Shown here piece after piece: positions 16,448 through 30,490 of a stretch of 61,818 nucleotides of DNA. The stretch's first letter is position 1. Every line of letters begins with the position of its first letter. The notes beneath the pieces were generated by a model, which was given only the letters and a program-made list of their open reading frames with translations, did no database searches and was not told the origin of the DNA. This DNA comes from Planctomycetota bacterium (GTDB taxonomy: Bacteria; Planctomycetota; UBA8742; UBA2392), in assembly GCA_022071975.1 (NCBI GenBank), contig JAJVIO010000029.1, forward strand, positions 1 to 61,818, in the 5' to 3' direction. The position numbers and the translations under genes are program-made.

Positions 16448-18130
16448 ATGAGCGACGAAACCAACAACCCCGAACGCGAGCGCCTGGAAGACCTCAATAT
16501 AGAGGAAGCCGCCGGCCGCGTGACGCCGCCGGACCTGACGGCGCGCATCCTGGCCGCGGCCCAGCGCGGCGCGATCGACGACGCCGTGACGCCGATCAGC
16601 GGGGCGCATTCCGTGCCGCGCAGCGTACGGCCGCCCGCCGGCCGTCGCATGACCGCGGCGCTGCCCAGGCGCAACTGGCAGGGCGCCGGGATCGTGTTGT
16701 CGGCCGTGCTGCTGTTCGCGCTGGCGCTGGTAGCGTTCGTGGTCTGGAAGGGCCCGGCCGAGAAACCAACAGGACAGCCTGCCACGGCCGAGCAACCCAG
16801 GGACGTGCAGCCTGAAGCTCCTGGCGCATCGCCCAAGCGATCGATCCCAGAGGAACCACAGGAGCGTGAACCGGAAAAGCAGCCCAAGCCGGACCTGGAA
16901 CCTAGGGTCGAGCCGAAGCCCGAGGAAGGCACACCGGAGCCGGAGCGGCCGGAAGAAATCGTTGAGGAACCCAAGCCGGAACCCGAACCCAGGCAACCCG
17001 AAGACGTAGTCGAACAACCAGGCCCAGAGTCGAAGCCGGCACCAGAGCCGGAGCAGCCAAAGGAAACCGTCGAGCAGCCCAAGCCGGATGACAAGTCCGA
17101 AGTTAAATCGACACCTGCGCCCGTCGCAGTCGCATATGTGCCGGACGGAGCGTACTCCAGGGGCGCACACCATTACCAGTTTCGAAAGTCTCCCGATGAC
17201 GAATGGGCGAAGCTCTACTCGCAACTCAAGGACATTCCGCCCAGCAACGACGACAAGACTTGGCTGTACGAAGGCTGGCAGTTGAGATCAGAAGCGGGCG
17301 ATGTGTACCTGACGAATGGTGCACTGATCCAACTCGATGGCGTGGCCGGGTTCCACACCTTTGCAAATGGCCTCCGAATCGAATTGGTTGAAGATGAGAT
17401 GTACGTCGACAACCTCGCTACCACTTCCACGGTGCAGGTGACTCAAGGGGAACTGCTGGTCAACATCTCGGACGGCGCTGCCTTGTTTGAATCCAGGAGT
17501 GGCAAGCTGGACATCTTCTGTGTCGACGGCCAGGTTGAGGTCGATGGAAAGATTATCGCCGCAGGTTACGCAGCTACACTGGGCAAACGTGGTCTCTCGA
17601 GAATCCGCGAAGCGACCCAACGGGATATGGACCACCCTCTTTTGACGGGCGCAACGCCACGTCAGCTTGGACTTGAGGAGTTTGATTCCGAGCCCGTCGG
17701 TGGATTCATCCAGGGAGCGATTGAAACTCGATCCGCGACAGAGCTTGGCACCGACGATGCCGGCCACGTGGCGATCGACACCGGCCGTGACGCGGCCGTC
17801 GCATTCCAGTTTGATGGCGATCACGCGACACTTCGCGGCGAAAGCGTGCGGGTGCGCTACCGCGCCACCGGCGCGAAAAAGCTGATCCTGCAGATGTTCT
17901 GCCCGGCGCGGAACGACAACTTCGGCATCGACCTCGAGCCCGGCAAGGCCGGCGAATGGCACGTGCTCGAGATCAAGCTCAGTGACCTGCGCGACCGCGT
18001 GTCGCACAAGGACGCGCCGCCGCCGGGCACGCTGCTGAGCAGCTTCACACTGGCATTGACAGGTCAAGATGACGCGCAGCTCGAAGTGGACTGGGTCGAG
18101 CTGGTGCGCGAACCGAGATACGGAGAATAG
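16448..18130 (+). CDS. Membrane FecR-like anti-sigma protein with Pro/Glu linker
   Basis: This 560-residue protein starts at ATG 16448 (MSDETNNPERERLEDLN). The ~75-residue cytoplasmic N-terminus is of the size that binds ECF sigma factors. One membrane helix follows (~78-101; AGIVLSAVLLFALALVAFVV), then a ~110-residue Pro/Glu/Lys linker. A FecR-like beta region (~270-385) contains FANGLRIELVEDEMYVDN and KLDIFCVDGQVEVDGK. A C-terminal jelly-roll-like domain follows (VRVRYRATGAKKLILQMF). It is placed directly after the sigma gene, so it should hold that sigma at the membrane until a periplasmic signal arrives. The ligand is unknown. Confidence 0.7.
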   Translation: MSDETNNPERERLEDLNIEEAAGRVTPPDLTARILAAAQRGAIDDAVTPISGAHSVPRSVRPPAGRRMTAALPRRNWQGAGIVLSAVLLFALALVAFVVWKGPAEKPTGQPATAEQPRDVQPEAPGASPKRSIPEEPQEREPEKQPKPDLEPRVEPKPEEGTPEPERPEEIVEEPKPEPEPRQPEDVVEQPGPESKPAPEPEQPKETVEQPKPDDKSEVKSTPAPVAVAYVPDGAYSRGAHHYQFRKSPDDEWAKLYSQLKDIPPSNDDKTWLYEGWQLRSEAGDVYLTNGALIQLDGVAGFHTFANGLRIELVEDEMYVDNLATTSTVQVTQGELLVNISDGAALFESRSGKLDIFCVDGQVEVDGKIIAAGYAATLGKRGLSRIREATQRDMDHPLLTGATPRQLGLEEFDSEPVGGFIQGAIETRSATELGTDDAGHVAIDTGRDAAVAFQFDGDHATLRGESVRVRYRATGAKKLILQMFCPARNDNFGIDLEPGKAGEWHVLEIKLSDLRDRVSHKDAPPPGTLLSSFTLALTGQDDAQLEVDWVELVREPRYGE

Positions 18131-18239
18131 TGGCACTCGCGTCCCGCGAGTGAGTGTCGCGCGCTTCCAGCGCGTGAAGTCGGCCGAAAGCCGCTGCAAC
18201 TCACTCGCCGGAGGTGAATGCCACCAAAGGAGACACACC
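18131..18239 (+). repeat. Short spacer with small GC-rich hairpins
   Basis: CACTCGCG-TCC-CGCGAGTG is a perfect 8-bp hairpin with a 3-base loop at about 18133-18151. A weaker CGCGC / GCGCG hairpin follows. The form resembles the hairpins at 26750 and 28583. The ribosome site AAAGGAG for the next gene lies at the end. Confidence 0.6.
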
Positions 18240-20183
18240 ATGAAAACGACAGCAATGCTGTTGCTGGCAACGCTTTGCCTGCCCCTGGCCGCCAAAGACT
18301 GGACGCCTGCACCCGCGCTGGCCAACCCGGCCGGCGTCACGGTCGTCAACGTCAGCACCGATGCGCAACTGCAGGCGGCCGTGGGAAGCATCGCCAGCAA
18401 CCAGCTGATCGTGCTGGCGGCCGGCACATACAACCTGAGCAACACCTGCTGGTTCAACCCGGCAAGCACCGTCACCAACATCGGCATCCGCGGCGCCACG
18501 GGCAACCCGGACGACGTGGTACTCAAGGGCGCGGGCATGACCAGCAGCGCAATCCCCCACGGCATCTGGGTCGGCAAGGTCAACGGCATGCTGATCGCCG
18601 ACGTGACCATCCGCGAGGTCTTCTATCACCCGGTGCAGGTCACCGCCGACAGCAGCAACGTGCATTTCTACAACCTGAAGCTGATCGACGCCGGCGAGCA
18701 GTTCATCAAAGGCAGCAGCGGCGGCAGCCCCGGCACCGGAAGCGATTACGGCATCGTTGAGTATTGCTACTTCGCCTACACCACACAGGGCACGGACTAC
18801 ACCAACGGCGTGGACATCCACGGCGGCCAGGACTGGATCATCCGCCACAACTACTTCCTGCGCACCAACCTGATCGACAGCAGCGGCGCGATCGGCCCCG
18901 CCATCCTGATGTGGAACGGCAGCAGCGGCACCATCGTCGAGGGCAACACGTTCATCAACTGCGAGTGCGCCATCGCGCTCGGGCTGATCCAGCGCACGCC
19001 GAACGACCACAGCGGCGGCATCGTGCGCAACAACTTCATCTATCGCGCGGCCGGCACGCCCCAGGGGGTTGATTCACCGGATGCCTCCATCTGGATCTGG
19101 GATTCGCCGGGCACCAAGGTGCTGAACAACACGGTGATCCAGAGCGGCAGCTACGCCAGCGCCATCGAGTTCCGCTTCGACACCACCGGCGGTGAGTTCC
19201 GCAACAACCTGTGCGACGGCACGATCCTGGACCGCGGCAGCGGAACCAGCGGCAACACCGTCGCCGGCAACGTCACCAACGCGCAGTCGGCATGGTTCGT
19301 CAACGCGGCCTCGGGCGACCTGCGCCTGTCCGCAAGCGCGCCCGCCAGCGTCGTGGACGCGGCCAACGTGCACGCGAACGTGACGGATGACTACGACGGC
19401 AACGCCCGCGGCGGCAGCCCGGACGTCGGCGCCAGCGAGCGTGGCGGCGCACCTGCCAACCAGCCGCCGATCGCGGCCGCGACCTACAGCGGCACGCCGA
19501 ACGTGGGCAACACGCTTACACTCGACGGCACCGGCAGCAGCGACCCGGACAGCGGGCCGAACGCGCTCAGCTATGCATGGACGCAGATCAGCGGACCCAG
19601 CGTGGCGATCAGCGGCGCGGGCTCGGCCTTCGCCTCGTTCACGCCTTCCACCGTGGGCAGCTACCTGTTCCGCCTGACCGTGGACGACGGCGCCGACACG
19701 GACACGGCCGACGTCAACATCAGCGTGATTGACCCGGCGCTAACCATTGACACGTCAACATGGGCCATGACCGTGACCGACAGCAGCCTGCCGGGCGTGT
19801 CGTCACGCCAGCTCACTTACGGCGGCACCGGCACGCTGACCGTCAGCGTCAGCGCCGACCAGGCATGGCTGAGCGTCGGCTTCGACAACGGCGGCGGTGG
19901 CAACACGCTCACGGCCGGCGCCACCGGCACGATCACCGCAACGGTCAGCAGCGTGGCCGGGCTCAGCAAGGGCGCGCACACGGCCGCCATCACCGTCACG
20001 GGCAACGATGGCGCCAGCCACCAGGTGCAGATCAGCTTCCAGCTCACGTACGCGGACGCCCTGGGCAACAGCGGCGGTGGCGCGGGAGGCGGCGGATGCA
20101 CGGCCGATCACGGCGCCGCATTCGCCGCCCCGCTGCTGTTGCTGCTGGCGGCGGCGGGGATTCGCCGCCGGGTGCGCGCATGA
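18240..20183 (+). CDS. Secreted right-handed beta-helix protein (polysaccharide-lyase-like) with PKD-like domain and sorting tail
   Basis: This is a 647-residue protein with ATG 18240 behind AAAGGAG and signal peptide MKTTAMLLLATLCLPLAAK. Residues ~25-400 have the stacked short strands of a right-handed beta-helix, as in pectate lyases and chondroitinase B-like proteins (TNIGIRGATGNPDDVVLKG; DWIIRHNYFLRTNLID; SGGIVRNNFIYRAAGTP). A PKD/REJ-type domain follows (LDGTGSSDPDSGPNALSYAW), then another beta domain. The tail is Gly-rich with one Cys (GGGGCTADHG), a Leu/Ala helix and RRRVRA, like the protein at 14105. It probably acts outside the cell on a polysaccharide. The lyase residues are not certain. 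Confidence 0.72.
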   Translation: MKTTAMLLLATLCLPLAAKDWTPAPALANPAGVTVVNVSTDAQLQAAVGSIASNQLIVLAAGTYNLSNTCWFNPASTVTNIGIRGATGNPDDVVLKGAGMTSSAIPHGIWVGKVNGMLIADVTIREVFYHPVQVTADSSNVHFYNLKLIDAGEQFIKGSSGGSPGTGSDYGIVEYCYFAYTTQGTDYTNGVDIHGGQDWIIRHNYFLRTNLIDSSGAIGPAILMWNGSSGTIVEGNTFINCECAIALGLIQRTPNDHSGGIVRNNFIYRAAGTPQGVDSPDASIWIWDSPGTKVLNNTVIQSGSYASAIEFRFDTTGGEFRNNLCDGTILDRGSGTSGNTVAGNVTNAQSAWFVNAASGDLRLSASAPASVVDAANVHANVTDDYDGNARGGSPDVGASERGGAPANQPPIAAATYSGTPNVGNTLTLDGTGSSDPDSGPNALSYAWTQISGPSVAISGAGSAFASFTPSTVGSYLFRLTVDDGADTDTADVNISVIDPALTIDTSTWAMTVTDSSLPGVSSRQLTYGGTGTLTVSVSADQAWLSVGFDNGGGGNTLTAGATGTITATVSSVAGLSKGAHTAAITVTGNDGASHQVQISFQLTYADALGNSGGGAGGGGCTADHGAAFAAPLLLLLAAAGIRRRVRA

Positions 20184-26565: not shown

Positions 26566-26745
26566 ATGAAAAACGTCGAGATGAAGGTGGAAGGCGACAA
26601 GCTTACGATCACGGTGGACCTGACCAAGGAGTTCGGGCCGTCGTCTTCTGGCAAGACGATCATCATTGCCAGCAGCGAGGGCAACCAGACCATCGAGTAC
26701 AAAGACGGCTACAAGATCGGTTTGAACGTCTATCGCAAGCCGTAA
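26566..26745 (+). CDS. Small conserved-looking protein, 59 residues
   Basis: ATG 26566 is preferred to ATG 26560 because AAGGGG (26554-26559) then has a normal spacing of 6 bases. The protein (MKNVEMKVEGDKLTITVDLT) is a simple run of beta strands with SSSGKTIIIASSEGNQTIEY. It has no cysteine, membrane helix or signal peptide. Its regular hydrophobic pattern and good ribosome site argue that it is a real gene. I recognise no function. It converges on the VWA lipoprotein gene, with a hairpin cluster between them. Confidence 0.7.
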   Translation: MKNVEMKVEGDKLTITVDLTKEFGPSSSGKTIIIASSEGNQTIEYKDGYKIGLNVYRKP

Positions 26746-26749
26746 GTGA

Positions 26750-26878
26750 TGCGGGCACCTTGCCCGCAAGTTGTGATGGCGCCTCGCCATCACAACTAAA
26801 TTCAAGCGCCGGGCTTGCGCCCGGCGCTTGCTCGCGGGCGGGGCGCCCGCGCCACACTTTGCAGGCGGGGCGCCTGCA
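26750..26878. repeat. Cluster A of five perfect small hairpins
   Basis: In order: TGCGGGCA-CCT-TGCCCGCA (26750-26768), AGTTGTGATGGCG-CCT-mirror (26769-26797), CAAGCGCCGGGC-TTGC-mirror (26803-26830), CGCGGGCG-GGG-CGCCCGCG (26833-26851) and TGCAGGCG-GGG-CGCCTGCA (26860-26878). All stems are perfect though their sequences differ. The loops are CCT on the left and GGG on the right. The cluster lies between convergent genes and may also end transcription. Confidence 0.85.
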
Positions 26879-26888
26879 TCACACATCG

Positions 26889-28547
26889 TTACTCGCCGCC
26901 GGCTGTGGCTTGTTCGGGGTTGGTCTTGTTGTCCAGGTCGCGGGCCTTGGTGATCAGGGTTGCTAAATCCAGCACCTCGGTTTCGTCCGTTTCAGCGATC
27001 AGCTTTTTCACATCTTCAAGCAGCGCGTCGTAGCTGGCGCCCTTGGCCCAGTAGCTCTTGCGCAGCATTTCGCCGAACTCGGCCACGTTGCCGGCCAGGC
27101 GCAGGCCCTTGGGCGCTTCGGCCCAGCTGCGGGCGATCTCGCTCGTGCTAAGCTCGCGGTTGATCTCGAAGAACTCGTCGCGCTCGTCGTGCTTGTAGCG
27201 GATGGTCGCCGTGCCCACGGGGCCGTTGGCGTTTTCGTACAGCTTGATCTCGTACAGGGCCGTCACGCTGTGGCCGCTGCCGACTTCGCCGCCGTCCACG
27301 GCGTCGTTGCGGAAGTCTTCATCCTTCACGTCGCGGTTTTCGTAGCCCAGCAGGCGCCAGGATTTCACCACCTCGGGATTGAACTCGACCTGGACCTTGG
27401 TGTCGCGGGCAACCACTTGCAGCGTGCCCGTCAGGTTATCCACGAACACGCGCTTGGCCTCATCCAGCGTGTCCACGTAGGCGTAGTGGCCGTCGCCCTT
27501 GTCGCCGAGCTGTTCCATCAGGTGGTCATTGTAGTTGTTCATGCCGAAACCGATGGTGCTGAGCTGGATGCCCTTGCGGCGCTGCGACTCCACCAGTTTC
27601 AGGATGCCCTCCGGGCCGGTCTCGCCCACGTTGGCGACGCCGTCTGAACACAAAATCACGCGGTTGATGCTGCCCTCGCGGAAGGCCTCCTCGGCCATGT
27701 CGTAGCCGATGCGGATGCCTTCCTCCGCGTTGGTGCTGCCGTCCGGGTTGAGTCGATTCAGCGCCGACACAATCTCCTCGGCGTCGTTGGTGTGGCCCAG
27801 CACCTTACGGCCGTTGCTGCCGTACACCGCGATGCCCACGTAATCGTCGCGGCGCAGCTGCTTGACCAGCATCTTGAGCGCGGACTTGACGTGGTTGAGG
27901 CGGCCGTCGATGTCCATGCTGCCGCTGACGTCGATCACGAAGGTGAGCACGGCCGGCTTGCGCTGATCGGGGTCAATGCGTTTGGCCTGCATGCCGACGC
28001 GCAGCAGGTACGCGTTCTTGAGGTCAACGCCGTAGCGCGAGGGGGCGGCGTCCATGGTGATGGCGAAGGTGTCCTCGTAGGGCGCTTCGTAGCCGTAGTC
28101 GAAGTAGTTGACGAACTCCTCGACGCGCGCGAAGCCCTGGGGCGGAAGCTGGCCGTTGTTCAGGTAGCCGCGGCACTTGGTGTAGGCGCCGGTGTCGGTG
28201 TCCACGGCGAAGGTGGAAAGGCGGTCGTCTTCGCAATCAATGAACGGGTTGGTGTCGTACTTTTCCCAGAATTCGTCGTAGGGCTGGCCCTCGCGGGGTG
28301 CACCGTCAGGTTCGGTTTCGCCGTAGTCGTCGTAGGCGAACCCGCCGAGGTTGGTTTTCCCGTCGGACCTCTGCCCGCCCAAAGATTGATCGAACAGGCT
28401 CTCGATTCTGGCCTGTTCCGCAGTCAATGCTCCGCCGCACGCGCCGCCGCTTGATTCATGGGCTGCGCCCGAGCAGGCCGCCAGGAAAACCAAGCCGCCA
28501 ATGGCTGCCAGCGTGAGCATGGCCGGGAGGTTTGATTTCGTTTTCAT
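26889..28547 (-). CDS. VWA-domain lipoprotein (YfbK-like)
   Basis: This 552-residue lipoprotein has signal MKTKSNLPAMLTLAAIGGLV and lipobox LAAC (Cys25). An N-terminal domain (~80-160) contains DDRLSTFAVDTDTGAYT and RVEEFVNYFDYGY. The VWA domain (~190-375) has the MIDAS motif DVSGSM (~205), a conserved Thr/Ser region and CSDGVANVG. The C-terminal ~150 residues match the DUF3520-type domain usual in YfbK proteins. It probably binds metal-dependent partners in the periplasm or at the outer membrane. It is the last gene after a sigma factor and a membrane VWA protein on the same strand, with cluster B hairpins between the two VWA genes. Confidence 0.85.
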   Translation of the reverse strand: MKTKSNLPAMLTLAAIGGLVFLAACSGAAHESSGGACGGALTAEQARIESLFDQSLGGQRSDGKTNLGGFAYDDYGETEPDGAPREGQPYDEFWEKYDTNPFIDCEDDRLSTFAVDTDTGAYTKCRGYLNNGQLPPQGFARVEEFVNYFDYGYEAPYEDTFAITMDAAPSRYGVDLKNAYLLRVGMQAKRIDPDQRKPAVLTFVIDVSGSMDIDGRLNHVKSALKMLVKQLRRDDYVGIAVYGSNGRKVLGHTNDAEEIVSALNRLNPDGSTNAEEGIRIGYDMAEEAFREGSINRVILCSDGVANVGETGPEGILKLVESQRRKGIQLSTIGFGMNNYNDHLMEQLGDKGDGHYAYVDTLDEAKRVFVDNLTGTLQVVARDTKVQVEFNPEVVKSWRLLGYENRDVKDEDFRNDAVDGGEVGSGHSVTALYEIKLYENANGPVGTATIRYKHDERDEFFEINRELSTSEIARSWAEAPKGLRLAGNVAEFGEMLRKSYWAKGASYDALLEDVKKLIAETDETEVLDLATLITKARDLDNKTNPEQATAGGE

Positions 28548-28582
28548 CTGCTGCCCTTTCCTTCAGGGGTGGTTGTTCGTGT

Positions 28583-28671
28583 TGCGGGCGCCTCGCCCGC
28601 ACGTGTCGTGGGCGCCTCGCCCACGACTGCGGCCGGGGCGGCCGCAACACATTGCGGGCGGGGCGCCCGCA
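28583..28671. repeat. Cluster B of four perfect small hairpins
   Basis: TGCGGGCG-CCT-CGCCCGCA (28583-28601), GTCGTGGGCG-CCT-CGCCCACGAC (28605-28627), TGCGGCCG-GGG-CGGCCGCA (28628-28646) and TGCGGGCG-GGG-CGCCCGCA (28653-28671). The first and last have the same stem. Loops are again CCT, CCT, GGG, GGG. The cluster lies between the two VWA genes. Confidence 0.88.
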
Positions 28672-28675
28672 TCAC

Positions 28676-30490
28676 TTACTTCATCTCTTTCGCCTTCCGT
28701 ACCAGTTCGATCAGTTCATCCACCTTGTCGTTGCGGAATTCCTGTTGCAGGTTGCGCAGGTCTTCGAGCACCGCATCGAGGTTGCCGTTTTTCGCGTAGA
28801 AGCCCTTGCCCAGAATCTCCGCGAACTCCGCCACGTTGCCCGCCAGCCTCAAACCTTTGTCGGCCGACTCCCAGTTGCTTGCGACCTGGGTGGTGAAGAC
28901 CTCCTGGCTGATTTCCAGGGCCTCGTAGCGCTCGTCTTCCTTGTAGCGGATGGTGGCGTAGCCGATCGGCCCGCTGCGGCCTTCGTACAGCTTGATCTCG
29001 TACAGGGCCGTGGCCGCGTGGCCGGCGCTGATCTCGCCGCCGTCCACCTGGTCGTTGCGGAAGTCTTCATCCTTGATGTCGCGGTTCACGTAGCCCAGCA
29101 GGCGGTAGGACTTCACCACGTCCGGGTTGAACTCGATCTGGATCTTCACGTCACGGCCGACCACTTCGAGGGCGCCGGTCAGGTTATCGACGAAGATGCG
29201 TTTGGCCTCGTCGATGCTGTCCACGTAGGCGTAGTGGCCGTCGCCCTTGTCGCCGAGCCGCTCCATGAGCGTGTCGTTGTAGTTGCCCATGCCGAAGCCC
29301 AGCGTGCTGAGGGTGATGCCCTTGCGCCGGTGCTCGATCACGGTGTTCAGGATGCCCTCGGCCTGTGTGGCGCCGACGTTGGCCACGCCGTCTGAACAGA
29401 GAATCACGCGGTTGGTCCAGCCTTCTTTGTAGGCGGCGGTGGCCATCTGGTAGCCGACCTTCAGGCCCTCTTCGGCGTTGGTGCTGCCCTCGGTGCTGAG
29501 CCTGTCGATGGATGCCAGGATTTCGTCCTTCTGCCAGGCGTCTTTGTAATCCATGTACTGGTAGCCGCGGCTGCCGAACACGGCGATGCCGACCTTGTCG
29601 CCCTCGCGCAGCTGCTCAACCAGCAGTTTCAGGCCGCGCTGGACCAGGCCGAGGCGCGCTTCGCCGCTCATGCTGCCGCTGACGTCGATCACGAAGGTGA
29701 GCACGGCCGGCTTGCGATCGGCGGCCGGAACCTCGCGGGCCTGCACACCGACGCGCAGCAGGTAGCAGTTGGTCAGGTCGGCGCCGTAGCGCGAGGGTGC
29801 GGCGTCCATGGTGATGGAGAAGGGGTCGATGGCGGGCTTGATGTAGCCGTAGTCGAAGTAGTTGACGAATTCTTCGACGCGCACGGCCTCAGCGGGGGGC
29901 AGGTTGCCGTCGTTCAGGTAGCCACGCACGATGGTGTAAGAGCCGGTGTCGTGCTCAAGGCCGAAGGTGGAGAGGCGGTCGTCCTCGGTGTCCACGAAGG
30001 GGTTGGAGCCGTCGGCCTGGAACTTCATGCCATCCGGAGTCTCGATCGGCGGTGGAGTTTCGCCTTCTGAGGGCGGAATGGGCGAGGGTGGTGGCGGCGG
30101 TTCCAAAACCGTTCGCACGCCACCTGTGGGCCGATCTACTTGCCCACCAGCGTTGTCTTCGAATCCGAAGGTGATATCAGCCAGTCCGGCTGCGCCTGCC
30201 GAGTTGCTAGCGTGCTTGGCGCTGGTTTCTGGCGTCGCTGCTTCTTCCACGCCGCCCATGGTTGCGAACGAAGCCAGCGCGCCGATGCCGATTACCAGTA
30301 CGATTGCTGCAGCCGCGGCCAGGCCTGGGCCCCAGGCACGCCATGCGGGGCGGGGCCCGGCCACGGGCTGCTTAGGGAGGGCGGCCTCGGCGCCGGCCTT
30401 GGCCAGCGTCTGGGCGATGAGGTCGGGCGGGGTCTTGCCGCCAAGGGCTTCTTCCAGCGCCGCCTCGAGGATGGGGTCATGGTCTTTCAT
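28676..30490 (-). CDS. Membrane VWA protein with cytoplasmic anti-sigma-like N-terminus
   Basis: This is a 604-residue protein. The N-terminal ~50 residues (MKDHDPILEAALEEALGGKT, PPDLIAQTLAKA) are cytoplasmic and resemble short sigma-binding tails. A membrane helix spans ~55-77 (GLAAAAAIVLVIGIGALASF), then a Pro-rich linker. The extracytoplasmic part repeats the layout of the lipoprotein at 26889: DDRLSTFGLEHDTGSYT, a VWA domain with DVSGSM near 267 and CSDGVANVG, and the DUF3520-like end. It starts 63 bases after the sigma gene stop, so it is the probable anti-sigma partner carrying its own periplasmic sensor. The fusion logic is inference. Confidence 0.8.
   Translation of the reverse strand: MKDHDPILEAALEEALGGKTPPDLIAQTLAKAGAEAALPKQPVAGPRPAWRAWGPGLAAAAAIVLVIGIGALASFATMGGVEEAATPETSAKHASNSAGAAGLADITFGFEDNAGGQVDRPTGGVRTVLEPPPPPSPIPPSEGETPPPIETPDGMKFQADGSNPFVDTEDDRLSTFGLEHDTGSYTIVRGYLNDGNLPPAEAVRVEEFVNYFDYGYIKPAIDPFSITMDAAPSRYGADLTNCYLLRVGVQAREVPAADRKPAVLTFVIDVSGSMSGEARLGLVQRGLKLLVEQLREGDKVGIAVFGSRGYQYMDYKDAWQKDEILASIDRLSTEGSTNAEEGLKVGYQMATAAYKEGWTNRVILCSDGVANVGATQAEGILNTVIEHRRKGITLSTLGFGMGNYNDTLMERLGDKGDGHYAYVDSIDEAKRIFVDNLTGALEVVGRDVKIQIEFNPDVVKSYRLLGYVNRDIKDEDFRNDQVDGGEISAGHAATALYEIKLYEGRSGPIGYATIRYKEDERYEALEISQEVFTTQVASNWESADKGLRLAGNVAEFAEILGKGFYAKNGNLDAVLEDLRNLQQEFRNDKVDELIELVRKAKEMK

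What the first reader, a model, noticed from the sequence alone, without database searches (positions are those of the whole stretch)
26750..28671. Two clusters of tiny hairpins whose stems differ but stay perfectly paired
Clusters at 26750-26878 and 28583-28671 hold nine hairpins. The stem sequences vary (TGCGGGCG, AGTTGTGATGGCG, GTCGTGGGCG, TGCGGCCG, TGCAGGCG, CGCGGGCG, and others), yet every stem is perfect. Eight of the nine have a 3-base loop, CCT on the left side and GGG on the right side of each cluster. In most, a GCG or CGC core flanks the loop. Perfect pairing across different stems means either selection for structure or a copying mechanism that builds each arm from the other. Similar small hairpins (TCC loop) occur at 18133. 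This does not look like ordinary REP elements, where the stem itself is conserved.
Basis: partly seen in the sequence, partly recalled or inferred. Interest (0 to 1): 0.75.

Follow-up and report, generated by a model that had tools for sequence, protein, structure and literature searches.

The report
Mobile hairpins with transposase inside genes
Two clusters of tiny DNA hairpins in a (likely planctomycete) genome are copies of a repeat family that also flanks a transposase gene lying in frame inside a fatty-acid gene of the same genome; that transposase likely moves the repeats, and relatives of it lie in frame inside many other conserved genes.

Summary
In detail: nine perfect hairpins, eight with a 3-base loop. 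The eight share a format: a tag (GTGN; once GTTG), an 8-bp stem of variable sequence and a CCT or CCC loop, in inverted sets with tags outward, as in REPINs. The family is genome-wide: in 63 GTG-tagged copies, 23 pair changes are compensated and 11 one-sided. The same repeats flank a RAYT (REP-associated tyrosine transposase) in this genome. Around 80 RAYT relatives, tagged 8-bp/3-nt hairpins occur 131 times (0.1 in shuffles), with an identical stem on both sides in 23 of 31 loci. So these are REPs of a RAYT system, a variant with a loose tag. Published work on two other REPtrons (stem mismatches harm cleavage; stem letters matter less) would explain perfect but different stems.

The surprise lies outside the window. 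This RAYT sits in frame inside fabZ; ten genomes of its taxonomic family, this one included, have fabZ split at that site, nine in an open frame. In 39 of 80 loci a RAYT is in frame inside another gene (alaS, leuS, metH, ispG, dnaE and others). Ten searches of the paper library found no report of this.

The parts
26746..26768 (+). REP copy GTGA + TGCGGGCA-CCT-TGCCCGCA; its tag follows directly on the stop codon (26743-26745) of the + strand ORF 26566-26745
26770..26796 (+). Double-foot REP copy GTTG + TGATGGCG-CCT-CGCCATCA + CAAC (a complementary tag at each end)
26803..26830 (-). Inner untagged 12-bp hairpin with a 4-base loop; the only one of the nine that the terminator scan lists
26833..26855 (-). 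REP copy GTGG + CGCGGGCG-CCC-CGCCCGCG
26860..26882 (-). REP copy GTGA + TGCAGGCG-CCC-CGCCTGCA; ends 6 nt from the stop codon of the VWA gene
26889..28547 (-). VWA-domain gene (552 aa; vWF_A, VWA, YfbK_C) lying between the two REP clusters
28579..28601 (+). REP copy GTGT + TGCGGGCG-CCT-CGCCCGCA
28603..28625 (+). REP copy GTGT + CGTGGGCG-CCT-CGCCCACG
28628..28650 (-). REP copy GTGT + TGCGGCCG-CCC-CGGCCGCA
28653..28675 (-). REP copy GTGA + TGCGGGCG-CCC-CGCCCGCA; directly abuts the stop codon of the next gene
28676..30490 (-). Paralogous VWA-domain gene (604 aa; same Pfam set), whose stop codon abuts cluster 2
18130..18152 (+). REP copy GTGG + CACTCGCG-TCC-CGCGAGTG, of another stem type (tagged TCC-loop hairpins lie beside RAYT loci L044, L047 and L053)

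Best explanation
The hairpins are REP elements set as REPIN-like inverted groups; they are likely mobilised as single-stranded DNA by a RAYT transposase, which in this genome is flanked by the same hairpins and lies in frame inside a fabZ gene. Shown: format, copy number, orientation, co-varying stems, the flanking of the RAYT by matching REPs on both sides, and the continuous fabZ-REP-RAYT-REP-fabZ reading frame. Inferred: the RAYT reads tag, loop and a paired stem on single-stranded DNA, cuts and rejoins it, and so disperses copies (in the window, next to gene ends). Stem letters matter less than pairing, so stems drift; copies whose arms still match stay mobile and multiply, which gives perfect but different stems. 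Also inferred: the transposase is translated as an internal domain of its host protein, and this keeps it expressed and hard to lose.
For: Genome-wide: GGCGCCYCGCC 118 against 21 for the reversed control. Over 63 GTG-tagged copies, pair cells are 470 unchanged, 23 compensated, 11 one-sided; random placement gives 0.54 compensated cells, maximum 5 in 2000 trials. Adjacent pairs within 150 bp: +- 11, ++ 5, -- 6, -+ 0. 28 Y1_Tnp matches in the genome; the fabZ-borne one is bracketed by five GTG-tagged copies, three on one side and two inverted on the other, one of the five with a mismatch. Around 80 related RAYTs: 131 GT[AG]N + 8 bp + 3 nt hairpins within 500 bp, against 0.1 shuffled, 4 reversed, 7 at 1000-1500 bp; best stem match between sides identical in 23 of 31 loci, against 10% with swapped partners. 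The mix of two repeat types separates by the type flanking each genome's own fabZ RAYT in ten genomes (exact P 0.0095). Chimera: Pfam FabA in two stretches around Y1_Tnp; model pLDDT 84, pTM 0.56; fold hits FabZ across the insert and 4er8, a RAYT-REP complex. In nine chimeras NHVH is kept in 9 and Y...NP in 8 (KP in G006); differences at codon positions 1, 2, 3 of the RAYT are 27, 21, 59%. Two group-3 REPtrons: a stem mismatch strongly reduces cleavage, stem-letter swaps have moderate or no effect, loop and tag matter (PMC8266576, passages and sections 19 and 22).
Against: No movement was observed. At the window's two sites in sister genomes the repeat type fits the local fabZ RAYT in G002 and G003 but not in G004 and G005. 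The tag departs from GT[AG]G in 7 of 8 window copies, and in the S. maltophilia system changes at the third and fourth tag bases (GTTG, GTAC) abolished cleavage, while E. coli REPs need a bulged, not a perfect, stem (PMC8266576 passages); so this RAYT would have to read its tag differently. Ten genomes share ancestry, so P 0.0095 overstates the evidence, and I sorted the flank types after seeing them. With 28 Y1 matches, another RAYT could serve these REPs. 25 of 63 copies have no listed partner within 150 bp. Of the 80 RAYT loci, 41 have no copy of this exact format. Each of the ten insert-bearing genomes also has a full-length FabA-domain match elsewhere, so the fabZ chimera need not be essential. 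In this genome alaS shows a frameshift upstream of its insert.
Confidence: 0.87

Rival explanations
1. Arm-copying: during replication one arm of the hairpin is rewritten from the other by a template switch, so any stem change becomes perfect at once, without a transposase selecting for pairing.
For: In this genome compensated changes outnumber one-sided ones (23 to 11). In a second repeat type, an apex pair left free in the search is Watson-Crick in 145 of the 150 listed copies, with all four pair types present.
Against: One-sided changes prevail in the fixed part of that second type's stem: 25 one-sided, 7 two-sided and paired, 1 two-sided and unpaired. A one-sided G.T version is itself amplified in relatives. 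Seven stem variants account for all 21 perfect non-core copies, as expected if few variants arose and were then multiplied.
Confidence: 0.1
2. The hairpins are transcription terminators or RNA 3'-end protectors at gene ends, kept for that role and unrelated to transposition.
For: Cluster 1 lies between convergent genes, and two copies directly abut stop codons. REPs are often downstream of genes and plausibly transcribed (PMC3733652, section 15 read).
Against: Of the nine, only the untagged inner hairpin is listed by the terminator scan, and the count in the region (3) is at chance (3.4). No Rfam family reached its gathering score. The repeat type at the same two sites differs between sister genomes, and some sites have none. 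A terminator role does not explain the tag, the loop or the copies around RAYT genes.
Confidence: 0.05
3. A dead family: the REPs are relics, the RAYT no longer acts, and its fabZ insertion is a pseudogene.
For: Two RAYTs of this clade in the genome carry an internal stop (L044 TAG, L047 TGA). Another full-length FabA-domain gene exists.
Against: The fabZ chimera is open in 9 of the 10 genomes that carry the insert; the tenth (G005) has a run of N just after the RAYT. Codon-position differences show constraint on the RAYT part, and its motifs are kept. 34 of 67 places have the core stem unchanged.
Confidence: 0.1

Closest known systems
RAYT-associated REPs / REPINs (GTAG superfamily, REPtrons)
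   Same: Short palindromes, high copy number, 5' tag, inverted sets with tags outward, flanking of a Y1 transposase gene, compensated stem subfamilies; in the window, location by gene ends
   Different: The fourth tag base is loose (GTGA, GTGT, GTGG); the loop is mostly YCY; the RAYT has no stop of its own and lies in frame in a host gene
TnpAY1 subclass 2.4 of Quentin et al. 2018 (PMC6006769; sections 12 and part of 15 read)
   Same: NHVH, Y...NP-type motif, double-foot REPs, and in-frame REP insertions reported for this subclass
   Different: Here the whole REPtron is in frame inside an unrelated gene. That paper discarded a few unexpectedly long proteins as gene fusions or annotation errors (passage seen)
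Group-3 REPtrons of S. maltophilia and Marinomonas (PMC8266576; passages, sections 19 and 22)
   Same: Perfect stem needed, loop read, stem letters mostly free; in Marinomonas the tag helps choose the cleavage site
   Different: Other bacteria, other loops, stricter tag in S. maltophilia; not tested on this protein
Rickettsia palindromic elements
   Same: Palindromes inserted in frame in working genes (as cited in PMC3733652)
   Different: Those are the repeats alone; here the transposase gene is inserted with them
Inteins (recalled)
   Same: In-frame insertion into conserved genes
   Different: No splicing or homing family was listed for any of the 41 chimeric frames scanned

Membership tests
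REP / REPIN associated with a RAYT | Many short palindromic copies dispersed in one genome | tested here: met
   67 places within 3 mismatches; reversed-pattern control 1 hit, none
REP / REPIN associated with a RAYT | Matching copies flank a Y1_Tnp gene | tested here: met
REP / REPIN associated with a RAYT | Inverted pairs with tags outward | tested here: met
   Adjacent pairs +- 11, -+ 0; 26 of 63 copies have an outward-tag inverted partner within 150 bp, 25 have none listed
REP / REPIN associated with a RAYT | Mobilisation by the RAYT | not testable with these tools
   Needs biochemistry or strain comparison
Canonical GT[AG]G REP superfamily | Strict GT[AG]G tag at the foot of the stem | tested here: not met
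   1 of 8 tagged window copies is GTGG; the others are GTGA, GTGT or GTTG. GTAG is found at the fabZ RAYT of G001, G002, G004 and G011, so I file this as a variant, not as a canonical member
E. coli-type REP (subclass 2.2) | Bulged stem | tested here: not met
   All nine window stems perfect
TnpAY1 class 2 (RAYT) | HUH plus Y...NP motifs and homology to TnpAREP | tested here: met
   NHVH in 9 of 9, Y...NP in 8 of 9 chimeras; 4er8 by sequence E 0.0013 and by fold, rank 3, TM by target 0.59
TnpAY1 subclass 2.4 | Subclass profile | not tested
   No subclass HMM on hand; motif resemblance only
Intrinsic terminator | Stem followed by a T run, above chance | tested here: not met
   3 found, 3.4 expected in the region
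Intein | Splicing or homing domain in the insert | tested here: not met
   None listed in Pfam scans of 41 chimeric frames

The most novel reading that the evidence does not exclude
A lineage of RAYTs has adopted a protein-embedded way of life: the whole REP-RAYT-REP unit has no stop codon, is translated as an internal domain of conserved and often essential enzymes (FabZ, AlaRS, LeuRS, MetH, IspG, DnaE), is inherited with them for long periods, and from that shelter seeds ever-changing hairpin families through the genome.
Probability: 0.6. Interest if true: 0.86.

Novelty: new variant of a known kind. Interest (0 to 1): 0.73.

Why it matters
REPs are abundant and long known, yet how they spread and why their transposase persists is open. 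Here tag, stem and loop vary naturally beside their own transposase in dozens of loci, so the recognition code can be read and tested. The transposase gene also lies in frame inside conserved genes, which would explain its persistence and its expression. It would mean that working enzymes carry a transposase domain, that such proteins have been set aside as fusions or annotation errors, and that transposons can be shaped to be translated through. A cultured carrier exists (metH of Roseibacillus persicicus KCTC 12988, locus L147), so this can be tested directly.

Tried and rejected
Rfam: four matches, all below gathering score (best E 0.002, 27.4 bits against 61; highest score 28.8 bits against 90); none is credible. 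Terminators: at chance level. Arm-copying was considered and set low (see rivals). Occupancy of the window's two sites in sister genomes as a clean test that the repeat always fits the local fabZ RAYT: failed for G004 and G005. Ten paper searches listed no report of a whole RAYT in frame inside another gene; the library lacks most subscription journals, so this is weak evidence of absence. Papers: PMC6006769 outline, section 12, part 1 of 2 of section 15 and passages; PMC3733652 outline, sections 5, 15 and 16 and passages; PMC8266576 passages and sections 19 and 22; all others were seen as search listings only.

Rows dropped or chosen: one search used 67 places from the union; I left out two that are the opposite-strand reading of listed hairpins (C9:8433 and C16:69437), and the cell counts use the 63 with a GTG tag. 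One search used the 150 places that one search listed; more exist unlisted. One search kept the best 80 of 560 relatives of one clade, some of them several to a genome, so 39 of 80 does not describe all RAYTs. One search used six of the nine readable fabZ linkers, those that share the two-hairpin layout; G011 and G009 hold two copies of the first hairpin, and I took the better paired one. Positions of REPs relative to stop codons were read only for the window.

Full report
Observation. The nine hairpins are real and perfect. Left copies are on + and right copies on -, so tags face outward. In cluster 1 the first tag follows a stop codon directly; in cluster 2 the last tag abuts one. The 18133 hairpin has the same format with a GTGG tag and a TCC loop. 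The clusters lie at the 3' ends of two paralogous VWA-domain genes.

A genome-wide family. The apex GGCGCCYCGCC occurs 118 times in this 4.24-Mb genome against 21 for the reversed pattern. Searching the whole 23-mer with up to 3 mismatches, which does not favour paired changes, gave 67 places: 34 with the core stem, 21 perfect with a different stem (seven variants), and 12 with a mismatch. Over the 63 GTG-tagged copies, 470 pair cells are unchanged, 23 are compensated and 11 are one-sided; random placement of the same substitutions gives 0.54 compensated cells, maximum 5 in 2000 trials. Copies inherited from one event count several times. Neighbours within 150 bp are ordered +- 11, ++ 5, -- 6 and -+ 0; 25 of 63 have no listed neighbour. 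Among 41 genomes, 12 of the 16 in the window's own taxonomic family have the repeat within 2 mismatches, and outside it there are single 2-mismatch hits in two genomes.

The transposase. The genome holds 28 matches to Y1_Tnp. The one at contig C16 is bracketed by five GTG-tagged copies, three on one side and two inverted on the other; one of the five has a mismatch. Other RAYTs in the genome have other stems in a similar format. I took 80 named loci that encode relatives (best 80 of 560; titles name Planctomycetota, Acidobacteria, Verrucomicrobia and others). Within 500 bp of these RAYTs there are 131 copies of GT[AG]N plus 8 bp plus 3 nt, against 0.1 in shuffles, 4 in the reversed sequence and 7 at 1000-1500 bp. 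Loops are TCC 71 and TCT 37 of 131, there are 47 stems, and 31 loci have copies on both sides, 23 of them with an identical stem in the best pair (swapped partners: 10%). 41 of 80 loci have no copy of this exact format.

Co-variation at fixed sites. In six related genomes the left linker of the fabZ-borne RAYT aligns over 48 bases without gaps and holds two hairpins. All 102 cells form standard pairs (G-T counted), 6 of 17 pairs change on both sides, 0 or 1 of 500 shuffles reach the observed measures, and slid partners show 0 or 1 such pair. This is a chosen set: six of nine readable linkers, and in two genomes the better of two copies of the first hairpin. In a second repeat type, searched with the apex pair left free, 145 of the 150 listed copies pair there (68.6 expected if the sides were independent) with all four pair types; in the fixed part of that stem one-sided changes prevail (25 against 7). 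The mix of the two repeat types in ten genomes separates completely by the type flanking each genome's fabZ RAYT (exact P 0.0095, not corrected for kinship; types sorted after inspection). At the window's own two gene ends, sister genomes carry another repeat type (G002 at both; G005 at the one seen), a similar one (G003 or G004, one site each) or none (G001 at both, G003 and G004 at one); G004 and G005 carry types that do not fit their fabZ RAYT.

Why stems vary but pair. Work on two group-3 REPtrons reports that a mismatch in the perfect stem strongly reduces cleavage, that changing stem letters has moderate or no effect, and that loop and tag positions matter (PMC8266576). If this RAYT behaves alike, perfect pairing with drifting letters is what selection by the transposase would leave. 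That step is inferred. Against it: in the same paper E. coli REPs need a bulge, and in S. maltophilia changes at tag bases 3 and 4 abolish cleavage, whereas here the fourth base varies. In the Marinomonas system the tag helps choose the cleavage site and GTGG still works, so a looser tag is conceivable.

The transposase is inside genes. The C16 RAYT has no stop codon of its own: one 379-aa frame reads FabZ first half, REP-coded linker, RAYT, REP-coded linker, FabZ second half, and Pfam finds FabA in two stretches around Y1_Tnp. FabZ is split in 10 of the 13 genomes of the family that searched, this one included; nine are open throughout and the tenth has a run of N just after the RAYT. G012 has the uninterrupted gene with 15 residues at the site. 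Over nine chimeras, host parts are 87% identical on average and RAYT parts 63%; differences at codon positions 1, 2 and 3 of the RAYT are 27, 21 and 59%, so the protein is under constraint. The model has mean pLDDT 84 and pTM 0.56, with weak REP-coded linkers, and matches FabZ structures across the insert and the RAYT-REP complex 4er8. Each of the ten genomes also has a full-length FabA-domain match elsewhere. For alaS, the insert lies at one site in G000, G007 and G009; in G007 the only alaS match found carries it in a 1170-aa frame, though that genome is 88% complete. In G000 the alaS frame is broken upstream of the insert. Of the 80 loci, 45 have at least 40 residues in frame after the RAYT, and 39 have at least 60 residues in frame on both sides. 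Pfam shows Y1_Tnp plus a host family in all 39, though in some a host domain is recognised on one side only: fabZ 6, alaS 1, leuS 4, metH 8, ispG 3, dnaE 1, DinG-type helicase 2, sua5 1, chorismate-binding enzyme 1, TPR/DUF5107 2, DNA-modification enzymes 10 (gene names are my reading of the domains). REPs of the exact format lie by 20 of these 39 and by 19 of the other 41, so REPs and embedding do not go together by count.

Place among known things. This is a REP-RAYT system with a relaxed tag. Stem subfamilies and in-frame REPs in genes are known (PMC3733652), and in-frame REPs within RAYT genes are known for subclass 2.4 (PMC6006769). What ten library searches did not list is a complete RAYT unit in frame within unrelated conserved genes; one survey discarded a few long proteins as fusions or annotation errors. 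Whether the chimeras are made as one protein, and whether the RAYT is active, is untested.

Noticed in passing
L041:3-3016 (alaS of the window's genome): Besides the RAYT insert, alaS carries a second in-frame stretch, nearer its start, that reads like REP-coded residues, and its two frames are joined by a frameshift (assembly error or real).
   Followed up: partly
window 18080-18260: A composite repeat region with a GTGG-tagged TCC-loop hairpin, resembling the REP group beside the RAYT at L044.
   Followed up: partly
L044 and L047: Two RAYTs of the same clade carry an internal stop codon, so some members are decaying.
   Followed up: no
G000 places listed: A further REP type with a GGAG tag (GGAGC-GCAGGC..): 10 of the 21 copies listed for this genome form inverted pairs 74-80 bp apart.
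   Followed up: partly
L188 left linker (G008): Five near-identical 30-bp REP units in tandem inside the fabZ reading frame, four with a G.T wobble: in-frame expansion of a coding REP.
   Followed up: no
window 26889-30490: Two tandem paralogous VWA-domain genes (vWF_A, VWA, YfbK_C) with a REP cluster at the 3' end of each.
   Followed up: partly
L104, L117, L123, L129, L133, L146, L147, L148: metH of Verrucomicrobiota, including MAGs labelled Akkermansia and the cultured Roseibacillus persicicus, carries a RAYT in frame between two stretches of its activation domain.
   Followed up: partly
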